Part shown: positions 11,638 through 57,378 of the stretch, one piece after another
Layout of the letters: every line of letters starts with the position of its first letter
How positions within the stretch are numbered: the stretch's first letter is position 1
Assembly: GCA_963575645.1 (NCBI GenBank)
Contig: OY754470.1
Span: 30,238,501 to 30,302,500 of the forward strand
DNA length: 64,000 nucleotides
Source of the DNA: Xanthostigma xanthostigma
Lineage: Eukaryota; Arthropoda; Insecta; Raphidioptera; Raphidiidae
Reading direction: 5' to 3'
Notes under the pieces: model-generated
Told to the model about the DNA's origin: nothing
The model's database searches: none
The model's input: only the letters and a program-made list of their open reading frames with translations
Program-made: the position numbers and the translations under genes

Positions 11638-11992
11638 TAAAAACTTTTTAACAAAAAAATTAAACCGCCGAAAAACTGAAAAGCAAAAAATAATAAATCT
11701 TTTTATTTAACTAAGTAGTTGAACGTACGTGACAGTCTAGTATATCTAAGTAATTTTGAGTCGGCGTCAAACAATCAATGAACAAAGATCACTAAAAGAA
11801 ATAACCAAATCAAATTAGAGAACTCTCGTGAACTCTCAGAGATTTCCGGCGAAGGATTGTTGACGCCGACTCAAAATTACTTAGATATACTAGACTGTCA
11901 CGTACGTTCAACTACTTAGTTAAATAAAAAGATTTATTATTTTTTGCTTTTCAGTTTTTCGGCGGTTTAATTTTTTTGTTAAAAAGTTTTTA
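11638..11992. mobile_element. Foldback element, ~140-bp arms
   Basis: The left arm (11638-11776) and right arm (11855-11992) are almost perfect reverse complements with one small indel near the loop; the spacer is about 78 bp. The outer ends are taaaaacttttt. The arms include AACCGCCGAAAAACTG and GAACGTACGTGACAG. There is no coding capacity. The family is unknown. Confidence 0.8.
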
Positions 11993-12895: not shown

Positions 12896-13353
12896 GTGTG
12901 TAGGCTTTCACGGCCGGTGTTGATCCAAATCTTCTTGATTTCCGGGCTTGTATGCCGTGGTCCATTGGTATTACTACCTTACGTTTCGTCTACAACTGCG
13001 GTAGACATTATCAAAGGCGATGTGGTAGCGGGTGAAGTGACCTTCTAGGCTGCTCACAGGTAAGTGTGGTACTTCAGTCTTTTATAGTCAGCGTGCTCGT
13101 GTTCTCTACTCGGTCGTAGTATGGAACAACCAATCACAAAAGAGCATACTACGACCGAGTAGAGAACACGAGCACGCTGACTATAAAAGACGGAAGTACC
13201 ACACTTGTCGACACACTTACCTGTGAGCAGCCTAGAAGGACACTTCGCCCGCTACCACATCGCCTTTGATAATGTCTACCGCAGTTGTAGACGAAACTTC
13301 AGGTAGAAATACCAATGGACCACGGCATACAAGCCCGGAAACCAAGAAGATTT
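12896..13353. mobile_element. Foldback element with 10-bp flanking repeat; possibly Penelope-like
   Basis: Long arms (about 12927-13122 and 13145-13353) are near-perfect reverse complements around a 22-bp spacer. The right arm has a short extra segment near 13206. Identical 10-bp repeats CGATATCCAA sit at 12886-12895 and 13354-13363, consistent with a target-site duplication. Outside the left arm are about 30 extra bases (from gtgtgtaggctttcacgg) without a mirror partner, so the element is asymmetric. Each arm contains a small hairpin (GTCTAC, 7-nt loop, GTAGAC) followed by GAAAC, a hammerhead-like arrangement. Penelope-like ancestry is inferred, not shown. Confidence 0.65.
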
Positions 13354-13363
13354 CGATATCCAA

Positions 13364-14375: not shown

Positions 14376-14416
14376 AATTAACTCTTCAAATCTTTGATTA
14401 ACGTCTGAATAGAACT

Positions 14417-14553
14417 CTTCAAATAAATAAAATTGTCGACCAATTTTTCTCAGATCGAAACATCATCTTGTGTTTTATTGATTTGTTATTTTTTTATTTT
14501 TTGTCAATATATTGGTCTGAGAAAAATTGGTCGACAATTTTATTTATTTGAAG
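14417..14553. repeat. Palindrome with 38-bp perfect arms (family C)
   Basis: Arms 14417-14454 and 14516-14553 are exact reverse complements, containing TTGTCGACCAATTTTTCT. The 61-bp spacer starts with ATCGAAACATCATC. Single arms of the same sequence occur at 28496-28533, near 38118-38146 and (diverged) near 36205-36230, so this is a dispersed family that has become a foldback here. Confidence 0.75.
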
Positions 14554-15413
14554 AATTAACTCTTCCGCTTAGTATAGATGATTTAACCATTTAAATTTAA
14601 CGGGTAATACGAAGTATTCTAAACAAGTCCCCGATTTAAAATAAACGAGTTTCGTCATCCTTACTATAAATTCGATCTACTAAATTTCCACATACATAAT
14701 ATATGAACGTGTATGTATTCGATTTCGCTCGAAATATCTAATTTGAATTTTTTATGAATTTCGATATACTGTACGAGTATTTTAGACCCGAGGGAACAAC
14801 AAAAAATACATCTTTAAAGTTTTAAACTACATTTTGTACTGTTGAATCATTTTAACTTGAAATATACGTATACATGAGTGAACGTTTAAATTTCGATTTG
14901 AGCGATTTTTCTAATCGAAGGTTTTCGAATAGGATTAAATTGAAACTTTCATTTATGATTTATCGTTTCTCCTTATCCACATAATATACTATTTTATTTC
15001 GGAAAAACGAAGTGCAATACCTATTTCACTTTTTCATTTAATTATTTTTTTAAGAACAAAATAAATCTTACGCATACGTATATAAACTATATCAAGTCGA
15101 CTGTCAGGCATATTTCATATTAATATTTCTTCACAGAAATAAAAGGCGAGTATCATCAACCTCTACGTAAAAAAGTAATATACATAAGTAACGTTTGTCA
15201 TAAAAATAAGTAACGCAGATTCTTGCCAAGTTTCTAATGTTTTCACTAAAATTATAGAGAGGATTGTACTCACAACAAAATGAAAACAACATAAATACAA
15301 GCGCAGATACATAATAATGAAGAATTTGTAGTTTTTATGTGTAAAACTACTTTTTAATGTTCAGTTATTTTCAACAATAAGTATTAAAAGTGTTCTGCTT
15401 ATTGTAAGATATC
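14554..15413. other. AT-rich intergenic, no gene seen
   Basis: Nothing recognised. Confidence 0.4.
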
Positions 15414-15656: not shown

Positions 15657-15837
15657 TAATAAAAAATAGAGAATAGTTACTTCTTACCACAACAAGTTTA
15701 TTAGTGGATGTACATTTCGAGAGCTATGCTCTCATCTTCAGCATAGTGTATTGCTGAAGATGAGAGCATAGCTCTCGAAATGTACATCCACTAATAAACT
15801 TGTTGTGGTAAGAAGTAACTATTCTCTATTTTTTATT
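15657..15837. mobile_element. Perfect foldback (family B), ~85-bp arms
   Basis: The arms are exact reverse complements over about 85 bp with a loop of only a few bases at 15745-15750. Near the centre each arm carries CTGAAGAT, then GAGAGC-ATA-GCTCTC, then GAAATG (minus or plus strand), again resembling a hammerhead-type stem II plus GAAA box. It lies inside the hAT-like element. Confidence 0.8.
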
Positions 15838-16093
15838 TTAATTTATTTTTGATGAAAACGAAATTTTTTAACTTAAAAGTTTTGTAACTTTTTTTCAAAC
15901 GGTATAACCGATTTTACAGACAGTGAAATTTTCAATGAGATTAAATTTTTTCCTAATATTCTATGTTTAACAGTTATCAATTTAAAACTTATGGCATTCA
16001 CAATTTAAAAAAAAAATTATAAACTTAACGTGAGAAACAGATAATAACTGCTGTTAGAAATGTGGGCCCATAGGCAAGAAATGTTTAGGGCAT

Positions 16094-16524
16094 CTTAAGA
16101 GTATTCGTCCCTGCAAATACCCCCTGCACCCTTCATCTCAAATCTTTTCCCCTCGCCTAAAAACGGTTCGCGCTTTCCCGACGCTATTTTTAAAGCTAGA
16201 GGGTTCTGGTAAACGCCAAATGAAAGACAAAGAATCAGACTACAGATCCTTCAGGCGAATTTTTTGAAAAACAGTTTCGCCTACCTGTGAAATATTACGT
16301 AACTTATTATTTTTTTCAAAAGGTTGTGAGTTTTTTCAGGAATTTTTTTTTCAAAAAATTCGCCTGAAGGATCTGTAGTCTGATTCTTTGTCTTTCATTT
16401 GGCGTTTACCAGAACCCTCTAGCTTTAAAAATAGCGTCGGGAGAGTGCGAACCGTTTTTAGACGAGGGGAAAAGATTTGAGATGAAGGGTGCAGGGGGTA
16501 TTTGCAGGGACGAATACTCTTAAG
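16094..16524. mobile_element. Foldback family F1, copy 1 (431 bp)
   Basis: Arms of about 170 bp (16094-16265 and 16352-16524) are near-perfect reverse complements with ends cttaagagtattcg. A second copy at 28608-29036 has the same arms and spacer. The spacer (about 85 bp) is AT-rich and non-coding. Confidence 0.85.
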
Positions 16525-24498: not shown

Positions 24499-24879
24499 CT
24501 CGCCGTCACGTGTGTGAAGTTAGCCCCCCAACCAATCAATATTGCCCCCAAATATTTTGTAACCTTAATATTTTAATTTGTAACTATTTGTAACCAACTT
24601 TTTTAAATTTGTAACCAAACCGTTTTTGAGATATGACCGGTTTCTCAATGAGGGGCTAACTTCACGGTAGCCCCCCCAAGTCGTCAAATTTATTCGAAAT
24701 AATTTGTAACCTGACTATTTTAATTTGTAACTATTTGTAACCAACTTTTTAGAATTTGTAACCGAACCGTTCCCGAGTTATGACCGTTTTCTCGAATCAG
24801 TCAACAATGCATTGTTACTATTGTTGACTGAAACGAGAAAACGGTCATAGCTCGGGAATGGTCCGGTTACAAATTAAAA

Positions 24880-26520
24880 AACATTGGTTACAAATAGTTT
24901 CAAGTCAAAATATTGAGGTTACAAATTGTTTCGATTGAATTTGGTGCTTTTGGGGCACCCGTGAAGTTACCCCCTCATTGATAAACCAGTTATATCTCGA
25001 GAACAGTCCGGTTACAAATTCAAAAAACTTAGTTACAAATAGTTTCAAGTCAAAATATTAAGGTTACAAATTGTTTCAATTGAATTTGGTGCTTTTGGGG
25101 CACCAGTGAAGCTAGCCCCTCATTGAGAAACCAGTTATATCTCGGGAACAGTTAGGTTACAAATTCAAAAAACTTGGTTACAAATAGTTTCAAGTCAAAA
25201 TATTAAGGTTACAAATTGTTTCGATTGAATTTGGTGCTTTTGGGGCACCCGTGAAGTTAGCTCCTCATTGATAAACCAGTTATATCTCGGGAACAGTCCG
25301 GTTACAAATTCAAAAAACTTAGTTACAAATAGTTTCAAGTCAAAATATTAAGGTTACAAATTGTTTCAATTGAATTTGGTGCTTTTGGGGCACCCGTGAA
25401 GCTAGCCCCTCATTGATAAACCAGTTATATCTCGGGAACAGTTAGGTTACAAATTCAAAAAACTTGGTTACAAATAGTTTCAAGTCAAAATATTAAGGTT
25501 ACAAATTGTTTCGATTGAATTTGGTGCTTTTGGGGCACCCGTGAAGCTAGCCCCTCATTGATAAACCAGTTATATCTCGGGAACAGTCCGGTTACAAATT
25601 CAAAAAACTTAGTTACAAATAGTTTCAAGTCAAAATATTAAGGTTACAAATTGTTTCAATTGAATTTGGTGCTTTTGGGGCACCCGTGAAGCTAGCCCCT
25701 CATTGATAAACCAGTTATATCTCGGGAACAGTTAGGTTACAAATTCAAAAAACTTGGTTACAAATAGTTTCAAGTCAAAATATTAAGGTTACAAATTGTT
25801 TCGATTGAATTTGGTGCTTTTGGGGCACCCGTGAAGCTAGCCCCTCATTGATAAACCAGTTATATCTCGAGAACAGTCCGGTTACAAATTCAAAAAACTT
25901 AGTTACAAATAGTTTCAAGTCAAAATATTAAGGTTACAAATTGTTTCGATTGAATTTGGTGCTTTTGGGGCACCCGTGAAGCTAGCCCCTCATTGATAAA
26001 CCAGTTATATCTCGGGAACAGTCCGGTTACAAATTCAAAAAACTTAGTTACAAATAGTTTCATGTCAAAATATTAAGGTTACAAATTGTTTCGATTGAAT
26101 TTGGTGCTTTTGGGGCACCCGTGAAGCTAGCCCCTCATTGAGAAACGAGTTATATCTCGGGAACAGTTAGGTTACAAATTCAAAAAACTTGGTTACAAAT
26201 AGTTTCAAGTCAAAATATTAAGGTTACAAATTGTTTCGATTGAATTTGGTGCTTTTGGGGCACCCGTGAAGTTAGCTCCTCATTGATAAACCAGTTATAT
26301 CTCGGGAACAGTCCGGTTACAAATTCAAAAAACTTAGTTACAAATAGTTTCAAGTCAAAATATTAAGGTTACAAATTGTTTCGATTGAATTTGGTGCTTT
26401 TGGGGCACCCGTGAAGCTAGCCCCTCATTGAGAAACCAGTCATATTTCGGAAACGGTTCGGTTACAAATTAAACAACGTTGGTTACAAATTGTTACAAAT
26501 CAAAATATTAAGGTTACAAA
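24880..26520 (+). repeat. 145-bp tandem array, left arm (about 11 units)
   Basis: The tgaatttggtgctttt block recurs at 24936, 25081, 25226, 25371, 25516, 25661, 25806, 25951, 26096, 26241 and 26386, exactly 145 bp apart. Units alternate between two types (cagtccgg with cttagtt, and cagttagg with cttggtt), giving a 290-bp higher-order period over most of the array. Each unit contains three GTTACAAAT motifs. Confidence 0.92.
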
Positions 26521-26789
26521 TTGTTTGAGCGAATTTTTGTGACATTATAAAACCGGTTATATATCAGGAGCGGTTTGGTTACAACTTCTAAAAAGCTGGT
26601 TACAAATAGTTACTAATCAAAACATTATGGTAACAAATTGTTTCAAGTGAATTTCGTGACTTAAGGTGGGGTCCCAAATAATTTGTAACCTGACTAACCA
26701 AGCAATATTGCCCCCAAATATTTTGTAACCTTAATATTTTAATTTGTAACTATTTGTAACCAGCTTTTTTTAATGTGTAACCAAACCGT

Positions 26790-28080
26790 TTTCGAGATAT
26801 GATCGGTTTCTCAATGAGGGACTAACTTCACGGGTGCCCCAAAAACACCAAATTAGTTCGAAACGATTTGTAATCTTAATATTTTGACTTGAAACTATTT
26901 GTAACCAAGTTTTTTGAATTTGTAACCTAACTGTTCCCGAGATATAACTGGTTTCTCAATGAGGGGCTAGCTTCACGGGTGCCCCAAAAGCACCAAATTC
27001 AATTGAAACAATTTGTAACCTATTTTGACTTGAAACTATTTGTAACTAAGTTTTTTGAATTTGTAACCGGACTGTTCCCGAGATATAACTGGTTTATCAA
27101 TGAGGAGCATGCTTCACGGGTGCCCCAAAAGCACCAAATTCAATTGAAACAATTTGTAACCTTAATATTTTGACTTGAAACTATTTGTAACCAAGTTTTT
27201 TGAATTTGTAACCTAACTGTTCCCGAGATATAACTGGTTTCTCAATGAGGGGCTAGCTTCACGGGTGCCCCAAAAGCACCAAATTCAATTGAAACAATTT
27301 GTAACCTTAATATTTTGACTTGAAACTATTTGTAACTAAGTTTTTTGAATTTGTAACCGGACTGTTCCCGAGATATAACTGGTTTATCAATGAGGGGCTA
27401 ACTTCACGGGTGCCCCAAAAGCACCAAATTCAATTGAAACAATTTGTAACCTTAATATTTTGACTTGAAACTATTTGTAACTAAGTTTTTTGAATTTGTA
27501 ACCGGACTGTTCCCGAGATATAACTGGTTTATCAATGAGGGGCTAACTTCACGGGTGCCCCAAAAGCACCAAATTCAATCGAAACAATTTGTAACCTCAA
27601 TATTTTGACTTGAAACTATTTGTAACTAAGTTTTTTGAATTTGTAACCGGACTGTTCCCGAGATATAACTGGTTTATCAATGAGGGGCTAACTTCACGGG
27701 TGCCCCAAAAGCACCAAATTCAATTGAAACAATTTGTAACCTTAATATTTTGACTTGAAACTATTTGTAACTAAGTTTTTTGAATTTGTAACCGGACTGT
27801 TCCCGAGATATAACTGGTTTCTCAATGAGGGGCTAGCTTCACTGGTGCCCCAAAAGCACCAAATTCAATTGAAACAATTTGTAACCTTAATATTTTGACT
27901 TGAAACTATTTGTAACTAAGTTTTTTGAATTTGTAACCGGACTGTTCTCGAGATATAACTGGTTTATCAATGAGGGGGTAACTTCACGGGTGCCCCAAAA
28001 GCACCAAATTCAATCGAAACAATTTGTAACCTCAATATTTTGACTTGAAACTATTTGTAACCAATGTTTTTTAATTTGTA
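26790..28080 (-). repeat. 145-bp tandem array, right arm (inverted)
   Basis: The same unit in reverse orientation, with caccaaattcaattgaaac recurring every 145 bp or so (one unit near 27020 has a small deletion). The two unit types alternate at the left end, but the units nearest the right end are all of the ccggactg type. The arm arrays are therefore not exact mirror images and have changed independently. Confidence 0.9.
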
Positions 28081-28449
28081 ACCGGACCATTCCCGAGCTA
28101 TGACCGTTTTCTCGTTTCAGTCAACAATAGTAACAATGCATTGTTGACTGATTCGAGAAAACGGTCATAACTCGGGAACGGTTCGGTTACAAATTCTAAA
28201 AAGTTGGTTACAAATAGTTACAAATTAAAATAGTCAGGTTACAAATTATTTCGAATAAATTTGACGACTTGGGGGGGCTACCGTGAAGTTAGCCCCTCAT
28301 TGAGAAACCGGTCATATCTCAAAAACGGTTTGGTTACAAATTTAAAAAAGTTGGTTACAAATAGTTACAAATTAAAATATTAAGGTTACAAAATATTTGG
28401 GGGCAATATTGATTGGTTGGGGGGCTAACTTCACACACGTCTCGCCGTC

Positions 28450-28607
28450 TAGCCTAATATAAAAATTTTTGATAAACGTCTGCATTATAGAACTCTTCAA
28501 ATAAATAAAATTATCGACCAATTTTTTTCAGACTATATATTGACAAAAATAATAAAATTATAAATCAATATTTCACTAGATGACGTTTCGATCCAGATTT
28601 GGATCTT
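28450..28607 (-). repeat. Family C dispersed repeat fragment
   Basis: It contains cttcaaataaataaaatt at 28496 as in 14417-14454 and a minus-strand stem GATCC-AAATCT-GGATC followed by GAAACGTCATC (28578-28606). It abuts the F1 foldback copy 2. Together with the left flank of the giant foldback it may be one older repeat. Confidence 0.55.
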
Positions 28608-29036
28608 CTTAAGAATATTCGTCCCTGCAAACACCCCCTGCACCCTTCATCTCAAATCTTTTCCCCTCGCCTAAAACGGTTCGCGCTCTCCCGACGCTAT
28701 TTTTAAAGCTAGAGGGTTCTGGTAAACGCCAAATGAAAGACAAAGAATCAGACTACAGATCCTTCAGGCGAATTTTTTGAAAAAAAATTCCTGAAAAAAC
28801 TTACAACCTTTTGAAAAAAATAATAAGTTACGTAATATTTCACACGTAGGCGAAACTGTTTTTCAAAAAAATCGCCTGAAGGATCTGTAGTCTGATTCTT
28901 TGTCTTTCATTTGGCGTTTACCAGAACCCTCTAGCTTTAAAAATAGCGTCGGGAGAGCGCGAACCGTTTTTAGGCGAGGGGAAAAGATTTGAGATGAAGG
29001 GTGCAGGGGGTGTTTGCAGGGACGAATACTCTTAAG
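28608..29036. mobile_element. Foldback family F1, copy 2 (429 bp)
   Basis: Same arms and spacer as 16094-16524, differing by scattered substitutions (gcaaacacc versus gcaaatacc, for example). Arms span about 28608-28777 and 28869-29036. Two copies in one window show it is a mobile family, not a local duplication artefact. Confidence 0.87.
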
Positions 29037-29555
29037 AAATAATCTAAAAAAAATAAAAATTAATTAGTATATCTACTTATTTTCTTAAAGTACACAGGTA
29101 TAGGTGCACAAAAAGTTATAACTTATAATAATAAAATTTGGTGCCGAACCTATTATTTTACGTTTTATAATGGATTTTTTTTGAAAGCGGCTAAATTTTT
29201 TTTTAACTGACGGTGACAGATTTGGACAGCAATGCTTTTTATGTGGCGGGTAGTGTATGTCAAACGGATGAGCGGCATGGAACAGACAGTCCCAGCCGTG
29301 AATAAATAAATATGGCGGAAGGAGACGATGCAACCGTGCAATGAGGAATGCAATTTTCAACGTAAGAAACGTCAATGGCTCTACGTGTGTAGCTTCAAAT
29401 TTATTATGCATGCATCTCGTCTCTAATTACTATATTATTCACCTTATACAGTGTCAGTACCTACTACCAAGTACTAAGTGTAACATATTTACATAATATA
29501 GGTACCAATTCAGCATTCATTTCCTTTAGTTTTTCATAAATGAGCCAACATGTTA
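29037..29555. other. Intergenic, no gene seen
   Basis: The minus open frames at 29085-29411 lack domain similarity or a conserved start; nothing else is visible. Confidence 0.4.
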
Positions 29556-31384: not shown

Positions 31385-31625
31385 AAAATTTTTGAAAAGT
31401 GATTTTTCACCTAAACTAGTAGGTACCATTCCCCACTTGTGGGTTGGAATGGTAATATATAATTATTATATATTACCATTCCAACCCACAAGTGGGGAAT
31501 GGTACCTACTAGTTTAGGTGAAAAATCACTTTTCAAAAATTTTCATCCCTCAGTTCTATTTATGGAAAGCTAACCCTAAATTATTTAGGGTTAGCTTTCC
31601 ATAAATAGAACTGAGGGATGAAAAT
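31385..31625. repeat. Two adjacent perfect palindromes
   Basis: The first palindrome (31385-31543) has ~78-bp arms meeting in tatataattattatata and contains the R1 end motif CCATTCCAACCCACAAGTGG. Sharing only its last few bases, a second perfect palindrome follows at 31540-31625 (about 41-bp arms, cccctaaa-like centre). Such back-to-back hairpins could extrude as cruciforms. Confidence 0.8.
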
Positions 31626-32046
31626 TTGTATTTAAATCGGAACATTCAGCGTCCTGATCAAATGTGAATCGGAACGTATCCCCAGACCTGAGACCCCTGA
31701 AAATCCGGACATCTGGCAACGCTATACTTGCAGTCTATTGTGGCAAATCAGCTTGTAATATAACTAGCGACCTGGTCCGAATAAGCCCGAATTAGGATAA
31801 TGATTAATGACACCGTTGCACGTTGCAAAATTGGTCTTCCACGAAAAGAGCTTTTATTTTAACACGATAATATATGTATAGCGTACGTCCATCCTGAAGG
31901 TCCATTCTAATATTGATGAAAAACATTTTGTAATCGGGTGAGTAGTTTCGGAGATTACGTTCTACATCCAAACTTACAAACTTTACACCTCTTTATAATA
32001 TTAGTGTAGATTACACATAAGGGATTCATGCACGTTCTGATGTATA
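31626..32046. other. Intergenic, no gene seen
   Basis: A retroelement-tail-like phrase sits at about 31925-31990 (tcgggtgagtagtttcgg). Nothing else is recognised. Confidence 0.4.
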
Positions 32047-35034: not shown

Positions 35035-35127
35035 CAAGTAATTCAAGAATTACAAGGCGCGAAATTTTACATCATATACCCCGGTATTTTGTTTGAATAT
35101 CGGTGTATATTTATCGTTCAGCCCGGA
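35035..35127 (+). repeat. Dispersed repeat shared with 44946-45040
   Basis: Both copies contain agtaattcaagaattacaag, gcgcgaa-ttttacat and atataccccnacg-like blocks. This copy leads directly into the 120-bp array. Confidence 0.65.
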
Positions 35128-35666
35128 ATAAAATTAGTCCGCCTTCTTTAGAAGTCCGCCATATTAAATTTAGAGTGACGTCACTTTATTTTTCGAGTTA
35201 TTCTCAGCAAGCCCTTTCATTTGATACCCATATTGTAGGAAAGCATAATAAAATTAGTCCGCCATCTTTAGAAGTCCGCCATATTGGATTTAGAGTTACG
35301 TCACTTTATTTTTCGAGTTATTCTCAGCAAGCCCTTTCATTTGATACCCATATTGTAGGAAAGCATAATAAAATTAGTCCGCCATCTTTAGAAGTCCGCC
35401 ATATTAGATTTAGAGTGACGTCACTTTATTTTTCGAGTTATTTTCAGCAAGCCCTTTCATTTGATACCCATATTGTAGGAAAGCATAAAAAACTTAGTCC
35501 GCCATCTTTAGAAGTACGCCATATTAGATTTAGAGTGACGTCACTTTATTTTTCGAGTTATTCTCAGCAAGCCCTTTCATTTGATACCCATATTGTAGGA
35601 AAGCATAATAAAATTAGTCCGCCATATTTAGAAGTCCGCCATATTGGATTTAGAGTGACGTCACAC
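35128..35666 (+). repeat. 120-bp tandem array, about 4.5 units
   Basis: The aaaattagtccgcc block recurs at 35130, 35250, 35370, 35490 and 35610. Units are over 95% alike and each carries the palindrome TGACGTCA (TTACGTCA in one), the CRE/ATF consensus. Because 120 is divisible by 3, one frame stays open for 189 codons, but it opens with GTG and simply repeats a 40-residue unit; I treat it as non-coding. Confidence 0.88.
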
Positions 35667-36700: not shown

Positions 36701-38597
36701 TAACAAAAATAATATACTTAGTAAAAAGTTTTAAGATTTTTTTCTTCAAATGAACTGCGTAATATTTGTACAGTAGGAATATATATAATATGCGACTTGC
36801 AAAACAGGTGAACTCGAATAAATTTATGTGAGCACCCACTATTTTACGCCGGTCAAACTTTCATCAACAATTCATTTGTTATTTTCAAAATCGCATTCGC
36901 AGTTTTTTGTTTTCGTACATATTATATATATAATGCTTTGGTACATTCAAACTTATATTCCGTGAAAATATAAACGTATTTTGGTTATGATAGAATCTGT
37001 AAAAACCATATATCTATTAATAAACTATATGAATCATTGCCTATCTACTCAATGTACGGTGAGTGAACGCAACAAAGCGTATCGAAAATATATCTGCGTC
37101 TCTTTCTTCGATGTAATTCCCTGATTTCTCCGATGACAGGATTGGTACTTTCATTTAATCTGAATAAAGTATCTCTGTTTCAAAAACTTTGTCTTTTTCT
37201 ATGACGTTAACATGAGCGTACCCAGCTTTTGGCCCAGAAGTGGGCAAATTAGAAATTTTTTAAGCCGGGTTCTCCGTGCTTGTTTTGCCCTCTCTCTATG
37301 TTGAACATATTCGAGGTGTCAGACATTTTAAATGCTTCATGTTATTTGTCAGAGAACATTATTTTAGCGTTTTGGTTGAAGTTTTTAAGCTATCCAATTA
37401 AAAAAAACAAACACTAAACAGTATCTATAAATTTGTACATGTTGTCAAAACGACATCTTTCGGAAAATTTAGAGGGAAAACGCCCCAAAATCAAGAAAAG
37501 TCATAGAGGAAATAGGTGTCAGACTAGACCTAATGAAGTCATATACAAAGTTTGGGGAGAGTATGTGTCAGTAAAATTTTTGCCGACGGGCACTCTGACT
37601 ATAAGTTAGTCGCATTTCGAAATTTATTATTTTCGAATTTGTTCTTTTACTTGTGCTATGAAATATTCTTTCGTGCCTTTCAAGATTTTAGGTAAACTGG
37701 AATAATCTAAAACCTTTGGAGATTTCGAAAATGTAAAAAAAAATATATGTTACCGTTTGAAAAAAAATGCATGTACACAGGGTCGAATCTACGTATTTTG
37801 CGCTTATGGGCCCCTCGAAATTGACGCCCTCCCCACAATTAAAAGCACTCTATACCCCAACCAAAATTTTCTCTATTATTTACATTGGATTTGAAATATT
37901 TTTTACCGCCGAACGGAGCCGGAGATGCACGAAGCAACAGCACCGACACCCCCTCCCCCTTGCACACAATCAGCTGAAACAGTCCCCGAATGTACCCGAG
38001 ACTGCGCGGAGCGGTGGCCGCCTTCTCTTACTCTCTCTCTCTCACATACGAAGGTCCAAATCCGGATTGAAACGTTAATGTATTAATTATATATTTTTTG
38101 TTAATATATTGTCTGAAAAATTGGTCGATAATTTTATTTATTGAAAAAAAACACTATTTTGTTTTTGTACCTAGTATAGAATACACGAATTTATTCACTG
38201 TTATACCACTTTTGGTGAACACACTGTATACATTGTAAGGGTTAAATCAGTAGGTACCTATATTATATTGTTCGCAAATGATTATCCCGTAGTGAAAACG
38301 ATTGACAGAGTTATAAATAAATATTGATGAGAAACGTGGAAGTACAATGTTGAATCTGTTCCAAAATTTTAAACTACACATTCACTTATTTCGAACATAG
38401 TCGCAACATCTAAAAATCTGTTTATGCTTTTTTGAAAAAGTAAAGGTTCAGTCACACCACGAATTACAAAATGATAAGAAAGAAACAAGGGCCGAGCAAC
38501 TACCTATCAAGGGCGTAGGAAATCCCGTCTTTTGTAATTTTGCTCCCTACTTAACAATTGGTTCTAACTACGTCCTTGTTACCTGCTAATATTTTTT
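36701..38597. other. Intergenic with repeat fragments
   Basis: It holds 37211-37300 (partner of 4009-4095) and a family C fragment at about 38055-38150 (ggtccaaatccggattgaaac, then tctgaaaaattggtcgata). A GC-richer stretch with (CT)n lies at 37910-38045. No gene. Confidence 0.45.
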
Positions 38598-40165: not shown

Positions 40166-41757
40166 GCACAGGGTCAGGCGGAACGTTACGCGTTAGGAAC
40201 GTTACGCGTTACGAACATTACACTTTTTCGTGCATGCAGCCGGTGTTTTATCAATTTATAAGATTGGTGATTCATCAATTTATAAGACGTTATCACGTCA
40301 AAAATATTAATTGTGAACACTAAATTATGCAATGAACGCGTGAACCAGACTGTTGAAGTTATAGTACTTAGATATAATATTATATTTTGATCTGTAAATT
40401 ACAAAGTTTATTAATAAAACATTATTGCTGAATTGCACAACGTATTGTCAGACAACTTTAATAGTTGACATTGCCCTTAGACCGCGACTATACACATCTT
40501 GTTCAAAAAATAATTGAGTGACTGAACCGTTATTTTTTGTTCGTATTGTGTTTGTGTAGGTATTCCCACTTGAAACCACCATTTTTGTAAAAGTAAAGCT
40601 TGAAAAATTAATTTTCTTTTCGTAAAATAACGTTTACTTTTCAGTAAGTACATTCTAATGTCCGACAAAATAACAAATTTAATAACGATCTTTGATTGTT
40701 CCCTTGGAGGTGAGTAAAAACTTAATAATATTATGTCATCCTATATGCGTTGTGAAACCCGACATAAGGACATTTTTAAATTCAAACTGACGATTATTAC
40801 ATGCCAATAATTACTAGCATACTTAGTTATTGATTGCAGCTGCGGAGTGATAAATAATTCGTAATAATACATATTTACTATTAAAACGGGAGTAAGGTGT
40901 TCAATTATTATTTTACTTCTAGAAATTACAAAAAATCAGCAAATATAGTTATGCAGCATTAAATAGCGAATATTATTTTTGGTTTCTCTTGCACTTTTGA
41001 TTTAAACAAAGACGCATATAGCGAAGACTCGTCTGAGATTAGTACATTCGCAGAAAGATCTTTCAGCGCTAAGCTAAGAATAAAGCGTCAGCAAGCCCCT
41101 TATTTGGTGATGCATGCGTCGTTCTCTTGCCCCGTGCACTCCGTGCTTTCTCGCATGGCACTGTATTGAGCCGTCGTTAAGCGTCGGTCCACTAAACGAA
41201 AAGTTTCGTTCGAACTTAATTCCTTATGACCACAAAGCAAAGTGATATATGTCTTCGAATCAGGGACAGTCCCGGTTTTACGGACTCTGTTCTGTTGTTA
41301 AAGACGTCAAGGTCAGATGCTACCGGATTTTATAAGTTCTAAAAAATAACCACTGATGACTTTTGCTTTTATTAGAGTACTCTATGATTTCAAATTTGTA
41401 AAAGAATAATTTTCTAAACGTATCGCGGTAGATAATTTAGTTTTTAAAAGTTGTAAGTACTTGTCAAATATGTATTCAAATTTCAAAAAAATTCACTGGC
41501 GGCAGAAAATCTTAACAATAAATTTAACAATCAAAACCAGTAGCAAATATAGAATTACAATACTTACCTCGTTCAGTGTACGTTATTTATTAAAAATGTA
41601 TTTATTTTTTCAAAACTGATTTTAGTTAGAAAAGTTACAAGTGTATAAAATGTAGTAAAACTGTTGAGGAATTCTGGTAGAAGGTGTAGTGAAATTTGAA
41701 AACATAACCTACAAATAATTACAGAATATAACAAGTTTGAAAACGCAATTTATAAGT
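40166..41757. other. Intergenic, upstream of LARS2
   Basis: A short direct repeat of gaacgttacgcgtta lies at 40182-40220. Otherwise AT-rich, no gene seen. The last ~150 bp presumably hold the LARS2 transcription start; no TATA box stands out. Confidence 0.4.
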
Positions 41758-44379
41758 ATGAAAACAAATTATTTTAAGTTGATTTTACTTAATAGAAATT
41801 TGCATTATATTAATAAACGACAAATATCAGGGCTCGGGCTATGGAATGAAGAATTATCGCTTGACATAAAACACCGCATAGAAAAATATTGGTCAAGCAA
41901 ATTAGGATCATATAATTTCAACGAAAATGATTGCAGCCGAGAAAAGTACTATGTGCTTTCAATGTTTCCTTATCCTTCTGGTCAACTACACATGGGCCAC
42001 GTACGAGTTTATTCGATCTGTGACTCGGTAGCTAGATTCAATCATATGAAAGGTAAAAATGTTTTTCATCCAATGGGATGGGATTCTTTCGGATTACCAG
42101 CAGAAAATGCGGCTATTGATAGAAATATAGCACCTGAGGATTGGACTAAATCAAACATAATCCAAATGAAAGAACATCTTCAAATGCTCGGGTGCGGATT
42201 CGATTGGCATAGAGAAATAACGACATGTAATCCAGATTATTATCGATGGACGCAGTATATATTTTTAAAATTGTTTGAAGCCGGTTTAGCTTTTCAAAAA
42301 GAAGCGCTTGTTAATTGGGATCCAGTTGATCAAACAGTGTTAGCGGACGAACAAGTCGATTCGAACGGATGTTCGTGGAGGTCCGGTGCCCGTGTCGAAA
42401 AGAAATTTTTGAAACAGTGGTTTATTAAAACAACACGTTTTGCTAAAGATCTTTCAGATGGCTTAAACGATCCTATCCTGGAAGACTGGCGTGATATAAA
42501 AAAATTACAAAACCATTGGATCGGCGAATGTAACGGTGTGCAATTTAATTTTGGAGTGCAGCCTTCTGTAAACAATAACATAACTGTTTGGACCAAATAT
42601 CCAGAATTCATTACACACGCTTGTTTTATAATTGTTTCACCGGAAAACGTCTTGTGTAAAACTAACCCCGTTACCGTAAATGGGATTAAAAAATTAGACT
42701 TGAATGCAATAAATCCTTTAACGGGTAATATTTTACCAATTTTTGTAAGCGATCAAATGGAGTTTCCACATGGCAGTGATTCTTATTTAGGTATACCGGT
42801 GTCATGTGACTATGATAGGAGTTTCGCAATTGAAAATAACATTCCAATATTAGAATTTGAACAGGTTCCCAAAACTGAACCTGAGCGTTTAAAATTGCAA
42901 CAGAAAAATTGCTTAGAGGCACGTAATTTAAATGTAGGTGGCGACTGGTGTAGTTTTAAACTTAAAGACTGGTTAATTTCAAGGCAGAGATATTGGGGCA
43001 CACCGATTCCGATTGTACATTGTGATAAATGCGGCCCTCAACCGGTACCAATCTCCGATTTACCTGTCGAATTACCAAAACTGAAAGAGCTAACAAAAAA
43101 AGGTTTGTCTCCTTTGTTACAAGCGACCGAATGGCTGGAAACGAAGTGTCCAAAATGTGGTAATAAAGCTAAACGGGAAACAGATACTATGGACACATTT
43201 GTCGACTCGTCTTGGTATTTTTTAAGATACATTGACCCAAACAATACTGAAAAACCATTTTCTGTCGAAAAAGTAAAAAACTTAGTACCGGTCGATTTAT
43301 ACATCGGTGGCAAAGAACACGCTGTTCTACATTTATACTATGCAAGATTTATCCATCATTTTCTGCATTCAATAAATTTGGTACCGGAACGGGAACCGTT
43401 CAAACGATTATTGGTTCAAGGTATGGTTATGGGACGCAGTTACCGGATTAAAGGTACAGGTGAGTATGTAACGGAAGATCAGGTTGATGTTTTGGATATA
43501 AAAAAGAACAAAGCGGTTCACAAAGAAACAAAACAACCAATAGTTATGGCATGGGAAAAAATGAGCAAATCAAAATTAAATGGAGTTGAGCCATCGAAGA
43601 TGTTCGAAGAATATGGCATAGATACAACGAGACTGTTAATACTCGCTGATATAGCTCCGACATCGCATAGAAATTGGAATTCTTCAACTTTTCCTGGAAT
43701 ATTAAATTGGCAAAGACGCTTATGGCTCACAATACAAAGTTTTATTGATCATCGTACAAATTTACCCGATGTTGATTATAACGAAAAAAATTATAAAGAA
43801 TTAGACGATTATATGTTCGATTCTAGAAATTACTACGTTAAAGGCGTTACATTTAATATTTGCTCCTCTCAACAACTGAGCGTCGGCATATCAAAACTAC
43901 AAGGTTTAACAAATAGTATACGCAAAGTTACGCCGGATGTAATAGCTTATAGTGCCCAATTTGAACGGTGTTTAGCGGTACTAATTATAATGTTGGCACC
44001 GATGGCACCTCATTTTGCTTCCGAATTATGGACTGGCTTTTTATCTGCGCCTAACAGGTTAAACGAAAAAGAAATTAAATGGGACAAAAATGTTCTCGAT
44101 CAGGATTGGCCTGAAGTAGATTCGGAGTATTATTGTGACATCGATATTAATGTTCGCGGTAAAGAAATAATTCATAAAATTACAAGACGCGAATTAGACA
44201 AATTAACTCATAATACAGCTATGAAAATCGCAATGAATTTACCAAACGTAAGAGAGTGCATTGCTGATAGAATTATTACTGATAGTCGATTTGTTTTATA
44301 TAAAGGATGTGGTGCGGAATTATTTGTTTCCACAAAGAAACAGACAAATGAAATTCAAGAAACTGTTGCTAATTGTTAA
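41758..44379 (+). CDS. LARS2: Leucyl-tRNA synthetase, mitochondrial (intronless)
   Basis: This enzyme charges mitochondrial tRNA-Leu with leucine in the matrix. I start at ATG 41758 (873 aa). The seven codons upstream are open but begin with TTG, unlikely in an animal nuclear gene. The N-terminus (KTNYFKLILLNRN) is basic and hydroxylated, suiting a mitochondrial targeting peptide. Class I signatures are intact: FPYPSGQLHMGH with HMGH at about residues 78-81, and KMSKS at 601-605. Two CxxC pairs (CDKC, CPKC) flank the ZN-like insertion around residues 422-466; the editing domain lies between, and an ADIAPTSHRNW-like connector follows KMSKS. Length fits the family (about 870-900 aa). The frame is unbroken from end to end. 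Lack of introns contrasts with all neighbours; retention of full length argues against a dead retrocopy. Confidence 0.96.
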   Translation: MKTNYFKLILLNRNLHYINKRQISGLGLWNEELSLDIKHRIEKYWSSKLGSYNFNENDCSREKYYVLSMFPYPSGQLHMGHVRVYSICDSVARFNHMKGKNVFHPMGWDSFGLPAENAAIDRNIAPEDWTKSNIIQMKEHLQMLGCGFDWHREITTCNPDYYRWTQYIFLKLFEAGLAFQKEALVNWDPVDQTVLADEQVDSNGCSWRSGARVEKKFLKQWFIKTTRFAKDLSDGLNDPILEDWRDIKKLQNHWIGECNGVQFNFGVQPSVNNNITVWTKYPEFITHACFIIVSPENVLCKTNPVTVNGIKKLDLNAINPLTGNILPIFVSDQMEFPHGSDSYLGIPVSCDYDRSFAIENNIPILEFEQVPKTEPERLKLQQKNCLEARNLNVGGDWCSFKLKDWLISRQRYWGTPIPIVHCDKCGPQPVPISDLPVELPKLKELTKKGLSPLLQATEWLETKCPKCGNKAKRETDTMDTFVDSSWYFLRYIDPNNTEKPFSVEKVKNLVPVDLYIGGKEHAVLHLYYARFIHHFLHSINLVPEREPFKRLLVQGMVMGRSYRIKGTGEYVTEDQVDVLDIKKNKAVHKETKQPIVMAWEKMSKSKLNGVEPSKMFEEYGIDTTRLLILADIAPTSHRNWNSSTFPGILNWQRRLWLTIQSFIDHRTNLPDVDYNEKNYKELDDYMFDSRNYYVKGVTFNICSSQQLSVGISKLQGLTNSIRKVTPDVIAYSAQFERCLAVLIIMLAPMAPHFASELWTGFLSAPNRLNEKEIKWDKNVLDQDWPEVDSEYYCDIDINVRGKEIIHKITRRELDKLTHNTAMKIAMNLPNVRECIADRIITDSRFVLYKGCGAELFVSTKKQTNEIQETVANC

Positions 44380-56145: not shown

Positions 56146-56789
56146 TCAAATATTTTTTTTAATCATTTTAATCAACCACTGGATGAGAAACGTAATGTAG
56201 TTGGCACCAGGTATATAGCTACCTATTTTATGATTGGTTTTTATAGGAAAACGCGCGAGATGGCGCAAGTACGAATTGAAAAACAAAAAACGTACAATGC
56301 GCATATTAGTAGACAAGCTCCGAAATTTTCGAAATTTAATATTTGATTTTTTCCAAATAAAGATAGATGGAATGGATCCTTTTTTTAATCGTCTTCTCTT
56401 TGTAATAGGAAGCCCTAAAAAAATTTATATATGACATATTTAAAGTACAAATCAAATGCGGTAACAATGACATAAAGTTTCTTTAAGGTTAATTACATTG
56501 TTAATATTCATTGAGGTGATACAAATGAAAATTAATTTAAAGTTCTTACAATAATGTATAAATAACAACCATTATTCAAATAACTATAATTAGTTTTCCT
56601 ACCTGAAACTGCTCCTTCTGTGGCAAAATCTTCTTCAGTAAAGTGGGCTTCACAAACTATTGCTTTAGCACTTGGAGCAAAAGCTTTTTCCCTTCCGATA
56701 GCATGCAACCATTTCTTTTTCAGTTCCAAATCCTTTGGAAATACAAAACCTTTATAATTTGAACATTGATTAACACAACACATCGGCAT
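56146..56789 (-). CDS. THAP-type zinc-finger protein, two exons
   Basis: THAP domains bind DNA through a C2CH zinc module. Exon 1 (56603-56789) starts at ATG 56789, two codons inside an open TTG, and ends TCAG|GTAGGA. Exon 2 begins at 56414 after tttttttag and runs to TGA 56146-56148; frame is kept (456 nt, 151 aa). C2CH residues are Cys4 (or Cys5), Cys9, Cys46 and His49, with the invariant Pro18 (FPKD), Trp27 and Phe50. Exon 2 supplies the closing AVPTIF-type motif as GSIPSIF (75-81), which strongly supports the splice. The ~70 residues after it are basic and hydrophobic with no domain, so the true 3' end may involve a further splice (a donor-like GGTAGC lies in exon 2). The partner or target is unknown. 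It might derive from a P-element-type transposase but no catalytic region is present. Confidence 0.8.
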
Positions 56790-57378
56790 TGTCAATGATT
56801 TATTATTTTAAATAAACTTATTTTGTACACAGTAAGTACTGTTGTCACAAATGGAGGTGGTTATATAGCTGGCGCCTCTAGCGTTCAAGTTTGGCAGTGC
56901 TCATTCTCATTGATAAAAAACACCGAAATATTTACAATTGTAATTTTTACCGAAATGTATCAAAAACATAAAACAAGGTCATGATTTGCATACAAAAAAA
57001 TGTTTAGAATTCCTCTTTTCACCACAGACACGTGATTTTAATCTTATAACTTGGTTCGTATCATAGGTTATAAGGTCATTAACTTGATTCTACGTATTTT
57101 CTTGTCAACGTATGTTTTTTAAGTATGAATCGGACCTATTTTCTCAATAAAATGACATAACAAATCAGAACTGTGATTACTTGATTTTCATGAAAAGAAT
57201 ATTAATAAACGGTATATTTGGAATAATTAAATATAAGAAATAATTACTCATGGATTTACACATTCACCTTTTGTGAAATACGAGTGTTATTACTTGAGGT
57301 AAAATGTTACTTTTTTTTTTGTTATTAAAAATTGATCTGATAAATATGTCTAAAAGTACAATTTTTTTCTAAGTCAAA
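56790..57378. promoter_or_regulatory. Divergent intergenic region between THAP gene and MFF
   Basis: 589 bases separate the two start codons. AT-rich with no obvious TATA box; a moderately GC-richer patch lies at 56855-56900. It presumably holds both promoters. Confidence 0.4.

What the first reader, a model, noticed from the sequence alone, without database searches (positions are those of the whole stretch)
24499..28449. Complete 3.9-kb foldback transposon whose arms are tandem arrays, with perfect 9-bp TSD
Seen: inverted ends ACGTGTGTGAAG / CTTCACACACGT, near-perfect ~375-bp outer arms, 145-bp tandem arrays in opposite orientation on the two sides, and CTCGCCGTC directly repeated at both borders. 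Known: Drosophila FB elements have long TIRs made of tandem repeats and 9-bp duplications, and Mutator-like elements also make about 9-bp duplications. Inferred: this is an FB-like/MULE-derived non-autonomous transposon. It has no ORF, so the transposase must come from elsewhere. I do not recognise its sequence, so it may be an undescribed family.
Basis: partly seen in the sequence, partly recalled or inferred. Interest (0 to 1): 0.88.

Follow-up and report, generated by a model that had tools for sequence, protein, structure and literature searches.

The report
Beetle foldback transposon built from ends
A 3.9-kb piece of mobile DNA in what looks like a beetle genome consists almost entirely of repeated copies of its own end sequence, arranged as a large hairpin; it looks like a well-preserved new example of a known kind of jumping gene that needs its enzyme from elsewhere.

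Summary
The element is 24508-28440 (3933 bp) with a perfect 9-bp flanking duplication (CTCGCCGTC). Its outer 645 bp are identical between arms; the arms pair in register for 1420 bp. New here: 3859 of 3933 bp belong to one ~145-bp monomer family. Each arm begins with two diverged monomers, then an array of the same monomer reversed, so each arm tip is a palindrome inside the big palindrome. The two arrays share variants in different orders although the tips are identical. GTTACAAAT boxes in the monomers are more conserved than the rest. No frame exceeds 80 aa. A housekeeping gene points to a beetle host. Best reading: a non-autonomous foldback transposon mobilised by a MULE/Rehavkus-type transposase. 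Closest published precedent: Rehavkus-1_TC of Tribolium, with 164-bp tandem arrays in its inverted termini; Tetris, Tm1 and FB are parallels. Other copies, an autonomous partner and a genomic empty site could not be sought: the own-genome search did not complete, and six pattern scans of viral and prokaryote collections found nothing. New member of a known kind; superfamily unproven.

The parts
24499..24507 (.). left copy of the 9-bp target-site duplication CTCGCCGTC
24508..28440 (.). the element, 3933 bp, inverted ends ACGTGTGTGAAG
24508..25152 (+). left tip, 645 bp, 100% identical (inverted) to the right tip
24508..24666 (-). terminal monomer LO1 (hand-cut), with its own inverted ends GTGAAGTTAGCCCC / GGGGCTAACTTCAC
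24667..24807 (-). second outer monomer LO2 (hand-cut)
24550..25076 (.). palindrome within the left tip (82% over 530 aligned positions): LO1-LO2 against LA00-LA01
24808..26555 (+). left array LA00-LA11, orientation opposite to LO1/LO2
26555..26665 (+). diverged central monomer C1 (111 bp; its cut overlaps LA11 by one base)
26663..26695 (.). longest stretch not covered by the three monomer queries (33 bp); by eye, part of it resembles a piece of an O2-type monomer
26687..28140 (-). right array RA09-RA00; RA09 is of terminal type O1 (94% over 111 shared columns) and lies in the centre
28141..28281 (+). second outer monomer RO2 (hand-cut)
28282..28440 (+). terminal monomer RO1 (hand-cut)
27796..28440 (-). 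right tip, 645 bp, identical to the left tip
28441..28449 (.). right copy of the 9-bp target-site duplication

Best explanation
A non-autonomous foldback DNA transposon that moved to this site by cut-and-paste, making a 9-bp duplication, using a MULE-type transposase encoded elsewhere (most likely Rehavkus-like, given the beetle-like host and the satellite-like inverted termini; it is not filed as a Rehavkus). Its body is multiplied transposon end: a ~145-bp end unit was duplicated in tandem and head-to-head, giving arms that can fold back on each other and on themselves. The GTTACAAAT boxes are proposed to be repeated transposase-binding sites. Tips are kept identical by exchange or repair between the arms, while the arrays grow, shrink and shuffle by unequal exchange. 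Shown: anatomy, duplication, single-monomer composition, identical tips, shuffled arrays, conserved boxes. Inferred: transposition itself (from the duplication), transposase type, binding role of the boxes, conversion and unequal exchange.
For: Perfect 9-bp duplication at exact inverted ends. Arms 645 bp identical, then 19 mismatches in 775 bp; an even, independent spread would leave the tips clean with chance 1e-5 (weaker in truth, since several mismatches are neighbours and come from the same monomer variants). 3859 of 3933 bp covered by three monomer queries. Over array monomers LA01-10 and RA01-08, 24 variable columns: 10 have all alleles in both arms, 14 do not, 11 of these varying only in the two inner monomers RA07/RA08. 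Boxes: 23 of 27 box columns invariant across 7 representative monomers (of 27) against 36 of 84 other columns; 1 of 110 circular shifts does as well; spacing 21/31/93 in arrays and 21/10/21 in O1. No frame above 80 aa. Beetle-like host: of the ten best matches of the mitochondrial leucyl-tRNA synthetase, eight name beetles, one a lacewing, one has no name. [quoted passage not shown] Rehavkus TSD 9 bp, Arthropoda and Annelida (table passage of PMC6446971).
Against: One copy only. No transposase seen: none in the element, and no transposase domain in the 10 of 36 window ORFs (>=90 aa) scanned with Pfam, although one of the ten holds a THAP domain; the other ORFs were not scanned. No sequence match to any MULE or Rehavkus could be tested. 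PMC6446971 lists Rehavkus TIRs of 26-400 bp and a minisatellite before the 3' TIR; here the arms are 645-1420 bp with arrays on both sides. PMC13359780 gives 14-1103 bp for TIRs of complete beetle MULEs, and conserved G/C in the first three bases of most arthropod MULE ends; here the paired arms exceed that range and the end reads ACG. Helical phasing: the period was fitted afterwards; coherence at 10.5 bp is 0.152 (left) and 0.265 (right), best 0.962 at 10.36 and 0.748 at 10.32, so 145 bp simply being 14 turns of 10.36 plays a part.
Confidence: 0.65

Rival explanations
1. Foldback transposon mobilised by another superfamily (P/Galileo, hAT, Merlin), with a 9-bp duplication by chance or family habit.
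For: Foldback shape evolves in several lineages: Galileo uses a P-type transposase (PMC3169594, PMC4079207 passages). A THAP-domain ORF, the DNA-binding type of Galileo transposase, lies in this window at 56532-56807, though nothing links it to the element. The end starts with A and the arms are longer than listed for beetle MULEs.
Against: Most Galileo copies have 7-bp duplications (PMC3573991 passages); hAT (8 bp) and Merlin (8-9 bp) are recalled. 9 bp is the length given for Rehavkus and Tm1 and lies within the MULE range.
Confidence: 0.2
2. Composite or dimer: the element arose when one foldback copy inserted into or recombined with another, and now moves as one unit using the outermost ends. 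This concerns its history and does not exclude the best explanation.
For: A terminal-type monomer (RA09, 94% to O1 over shared columns) lies in the centre; inner monomers LA11, C1, RA08 and RA09 are diverged; the uncovered 33 bp at 26663-26695 reads by eye as an O2/O1 hybrid.
Against: Unequal exchange between arms would also place O1 copies inside. No search for an internal duplication or inner ends was run.
Confidence: 0.3
3. A stretch of satellite DNA or a palindromic rearrangement, not a transposon.
For: Nearly all of it is satellite-like monomers.
Against: Exact inverted ends with a 9-bp flanking duplication, unique among 60049 pairs at that spacing.
Confidence: 0.03
4. Assembly artefact producing or distorting the palindrome.
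For: Perfect 645-bp inverted tips could be collapsed or copied in assembly; no reads were available.
Against: Arms differ by 19 substitutions in register and in array length and order; an artefact would not readily make the flanking duplication.
Confidence: 0.05

Closest known systems
Rehavkus-1_TC (Tribolium castaneum), with satellite TCsat23
   Same: Beetle; DNA transposon; inverted termini holding tandem arrays of a satellite-sized monomer (164 bp; mostly five and eight copies) (PMC10218199 passages); Rehavkus group listed with 9-bp duplications (PMC6446971 passage).
   Different: 9.5 kb, against 3.9 kb without ORF here; monomer 145 bp; sequence similarity not testable here; the group is listed with TIRs of 26-400 bp and a minisatellite before the 3' TIR; arm tips form palindromes of their own here.
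Tetris (Drosophila virilis)
   Same: Non-autonomous foldback, no conserved ORF, 8-10-bp duplications, tandem arrays (~220 bp) in the arms, array unit sharing sequence with the outer domain (PMC4079207 sections 10 and 19).
   Different: The paper reports a shared stretch of 37 bp between outer domain and array unit, and a middle domain; here outer monomers, arrays and nearly all of the centre are one monomer family. No sequence comparison was run.
Drosophila FB (foldback)
   Same: Long inverted arms of tandem repeats and 9-bp duplications (recalled; no FB paper was read here).
   Different: FB unit lengths of 10/20/31 bp are recalled; here 145 bp with boxes 10, 21 and 31 bp apart. FB-NOF not compared.
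Tm1 (root-knot nematodes)
   Same: Composite inverted repeats with a tandem motif, mostly 9-bp duplications, one type with a Phantom-like MULE transposase (PMC3169594 passages).
   Different: ~14-bp tandem motif; asymmetric 7-bp motifs outside the inverted repeat.
Plant MULEs with tandem TIRs
   Same: Whole ends duplicated in tandem on both sides (PMC3310237 passages).
   Different: External and internal TIR around an internal region, some with three TIRs in all; here the ends make up nearly the whole element.
Galileo (P superfamily)
   Same: Foldback with tandem repeats in some arms, reported to hold secondary transposase-binding sites in one subfamily (PMC3573991 passages).
   Different: 7-bp duplication.

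Membership tests
Foldback elements (structural class) | long inverted arms containing tandem repeats | tested here: met
Foldback elements (structural class) | target-site duplication at exact ends | tested here: met
Foldback elements (structural class) | dispersed copies with their own duplications | not testable with these tools
   The genome search unanswered in all ten tries; single copy in the window
MULE (Mutator) superfamily | 8-11-bp duplication (PMC6446971) | tested here: met
   9 bp
MULE (Mutator) superfamily | MULE DDE transposase in an autonomous partner | not testable with these tools
MULE (Mutator) superfamily | G/C in the first three terminal bases of most arthropod MULEs (PMC13359780) | tested here: inconclusive
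   terminus is ACG: first base A, then C and G
Rehavkus | 9-bp duplication, arthropod or annelid host (PMC6446971) | tested here: met
   insect, beetle-like host
Rehavkus | TIR of 26-400 bp (PMC6446971 table) | tested here: not met
   arms identical for 645 bp and paired for 1420 bp; arrays of five or eight 164-bp monomers in Rehavkus-1_TC would also exceed 400 bp by arithmetic
Rehavkus | minisatellite before the 3' TIR (PMC6446971) or arrays in the inverted termini (Rehavkus-1_TC) | tested here: inconclusive
   arrays on both sides: fits the Rehavkus-1_TC description, not the one-sided one
Rehavkus | PHD-finger transposase | not testable with these tools
Rehavkus | terminal sequence similar to a known Rehavkus | not testable with these tools
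   no eukaryote DNA collection or Repbase; the sequence was not in the passages read
P superfamily (Galileo) | 7-bp duplication | tested here: not met
   9 bp against 7 bp

The most novel reading that the evidence does not exclude
A transposon that is nothing but multiplied end: a ~145-bp end unit with its own inverted 14-bp ends has spread head-to-tail and head-to-head until it forms a palindrome of palindromes with almost no other content. Its identical self-folding tips act as the unit recognised by the transposase, and its arrays are both a binding-site store and a source of satellite DNA.
Probability: 0.3. Interest if true: 0.6.

Novelty: new member of a known kind. Interest (0 to 1): 0.42.

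Why it matters
It is a very clean foldback copy: exact ends, perfect duplication, arms long enough to tell array turnover from tip homogenisation. It offers a test case for how transposon ends become satellite DNA in beetles, where I saw one similar case in print (Rehavkus-1_TC/TCsat23), and for why arrays of possible binding sites accumulate in unrelated foldback families.

Tried and rejected
Relatives by DNA pattern: four scans of viral contigs and two of genome contigs gave 0 exact matches; these collections hold viruses and prokaryotes, so this says little about beetles. Relatives by spurious ORF: the 80-aa frame shared three words with no protein of the collection. Published sequence: four short strings searched as text gave two papers, each with one occurrence of one string; their titles (cordgrass SNP assay, pig gene expression) have no bearing and they were not opened. 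Other copies within the window: none at E <= 1. [quoted passage not shown] no match spans it. RNA family: four Rfam matches at E up to 0.1 (best 6.7e-09), all far below their gathering scores (56.1 against 195, 29.6 against 98 bits) and lying on the head-to-head monomer junctions; read as matches to a long hairpin, not as microRNA genes. Helical phasing was kept only as a hint. Marquez and Pritham 2010 (Phantom) is not held; FB details are recalled.

Full report
Check. The element runs from 24508 to 28440 (3933 bp) between two copies of CTCGCCGTC. Within it the ends ACGTGTGTGAAG and CTTCACACACGT occur once each. Of 60049 position pairs at this spacing in the window, one shares 9 identical bases: the duplication. 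For 400-bp arms at this spacing, the best of 56068 other placements (starts within 2000 bases of the element's start left out) matches 155 of 400; here 400 of 400.

Anatomy. The arms are identical for 645 bp, then differ at 19 of the next 775 positions, and stop pairing in register at 1420 bp. Tandem Repeats Finder gives 145-bp arrays of 11.6 and 9.5 copies. Cutting the element by hand at the repeat boundary gives 27 monomers, one of them (C1) incomplete: LO1, LO2, LA00-LA11, C1, RA09-RA00, RO2, RO1. Three monomers used as queries cover 3859 of 3933 bp; the longest gap is 33 bp in the centre. So outer domain, arrays and nearly all of the centre are one family.

Nested palindromes. In each arm the two terminal monomers face the array head-to-head. 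The left tip is thus a palindrome by itself, 24550-25076, 82% over 530 aligned positions, with an 84% core at 24685-24943; the matching right core is 28005-28263. O1 also carries inverted ends of its own, GTGAAGTTAGCCCC and GGGGCTAACTTCAC. A terminal-type monomer, RA09, lies in the centre and is 94% identical to O1 over 111 shared columns.

Arrays against tips. Among array monomers LA01-LA10 and RA01-RA08, 24 alignment columns vary. At 10, every allele occurs in both arms; 14 have an allele confined to one arm, 11 of them varying only in RA07/RA08 at the inner edge, two in the left array (LA08, LA09), one in RA03 and RA07. Two monomer types alternate in much of the left array but not in the right. 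Shared variants in different orders, beside perfectly identical tips, suggest arrays turned over by unequal exchange and tips homogenised recently. With 19 differences spread evenly and independently, clean tips would have chance 1e-5; several of the 19 are neighbours and stem from the same monomer variants, so the true figure is weaker. The mechanism is inferred, and a recent copying of one tip onto the other would look the same.

Boxes. GTTACAAAT-type boxes recur at 21, 31 and 93 bp in the arrays and 21, 10, 21 bp in O1. Across seven representative monomers chosen from the 27, and 111 columns where all seven have letters, 23 of 27 box columns are invariant against 36 of 84 others; 1 of 110 circular shifts does as well. 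For phasing at a period of 10.2-10.7 bp, 10 of 5000 random box triplets in a modelled ten-monomer array reach the observed value, 0.9% of 20000 random triplets within one monomer, and 0.07% of 20000 random quadruplets for O1. The box and the period range were chosen after seeing the sequence. At 10.5 bp the coherence over the real arrays is low (0.152 left, 0.265 right); the best values are 0.962 at 10.36 bp (left) and 0.748 at 10.32 bp (right). So phasing is a hint only. Transposase-binding sites are the natural reading, as reported for Galileo arrays (PMC3573991 passages).

Host and surroundings. The mitochondrial leucyl-tRNA synthetase gene within 41719-44379 was searched; of the ten best of 120 listed rows, eight name beetles, one a lacewing (fifth), one has no name, at 59-62% identity (that the genera are beetles is recalled). 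The species was not identified. Ten of 36 ORFs of at least 90 aa were scanned with Pfam: bystin, an esterase in two pieces, a THAP domain, and six without a family; no transposase. The element is the only copy in the window.

Comparison. Foldback elements with tandem arrays in the arms are known: FB (recalled), Tetris (PMC4079207: passages and sections 10 and 19), Tm1 (PMC3169594: passages), Galileo (PMC3573991: passages). The nearest precedent by host and anatomy is Rehavkus-1_TC of Tribolium castaneum, whose inverted termini carry short arrays of the 164-bp satellite TCsat23 (PMC10218199: passages). PMC6446971 (passages) lists Rehavkus with 9-bp duplications, TIRs of 26-400 bp and a minisatellite before the 3' TIR; the first fits, the second does not, the third fits in part. 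PMC3310237 (passages) describes plant MULEs with tandem ends; PMC13359780 (passages) surveys arthropod MULEs; PMC1634758 (one passage) only lists Rehavkus as a superfamily. No published sequence could be compared, and I do not file the element as a Rehavkus.

Verdict. A well-preserved non-autonomous foldback transposon, most likely mobilised by a transposase of the MULE/Rehavkus group. Its single-monomer composition and self-folding tips go beyond what the passages I read describe for the others, but I neither found nor excluded a published description: the searches were made, in open-licence papers only. I rate it a new member of a known kind.

Noticed in passing
28606-29038 and 16093-16524: Two copies (97% identical) of a ~430-bp near-palindromic element with CTTAAG at the ends; one lies about 160 bp downstream of the foldback.
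   Followed up: partly
12923-13357, 11638-11992, 15658-15837, 31385-31543, 31537-31627: Further palindromic repeats, 87-99% self-matching on the opposite strand; the window is rich in foldback-shaped repeats.
   Followed up: partly
35127-35664: Array of 4.5 copies of a 120-bp unit, 96% matches; the period is a multiple of three, so it stays open as a 191-aa frame, probably not a gene.
   Followed up: no
56532-56807 (-): ORF with a THAP domain (Pfam E 4.5e-12); the Tetris paper names THAP as a domain of the Galileo transposase.
   Followed up: partly
28463-28593, 14388-14557, 38068-38145: The right flank of the element belongs to a dispersed repeat with relatives at other places in the window.
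   Followed up: partly
24729-24897 (-) and 28051-28219 (+): Rfam matches to MIR8007 (56.1 bits, gathering 195, E 6.7e-09 and 6.8e-09) at the head-to-head monomer junctions, likely only because these form long hairpins.
   Followed up: no
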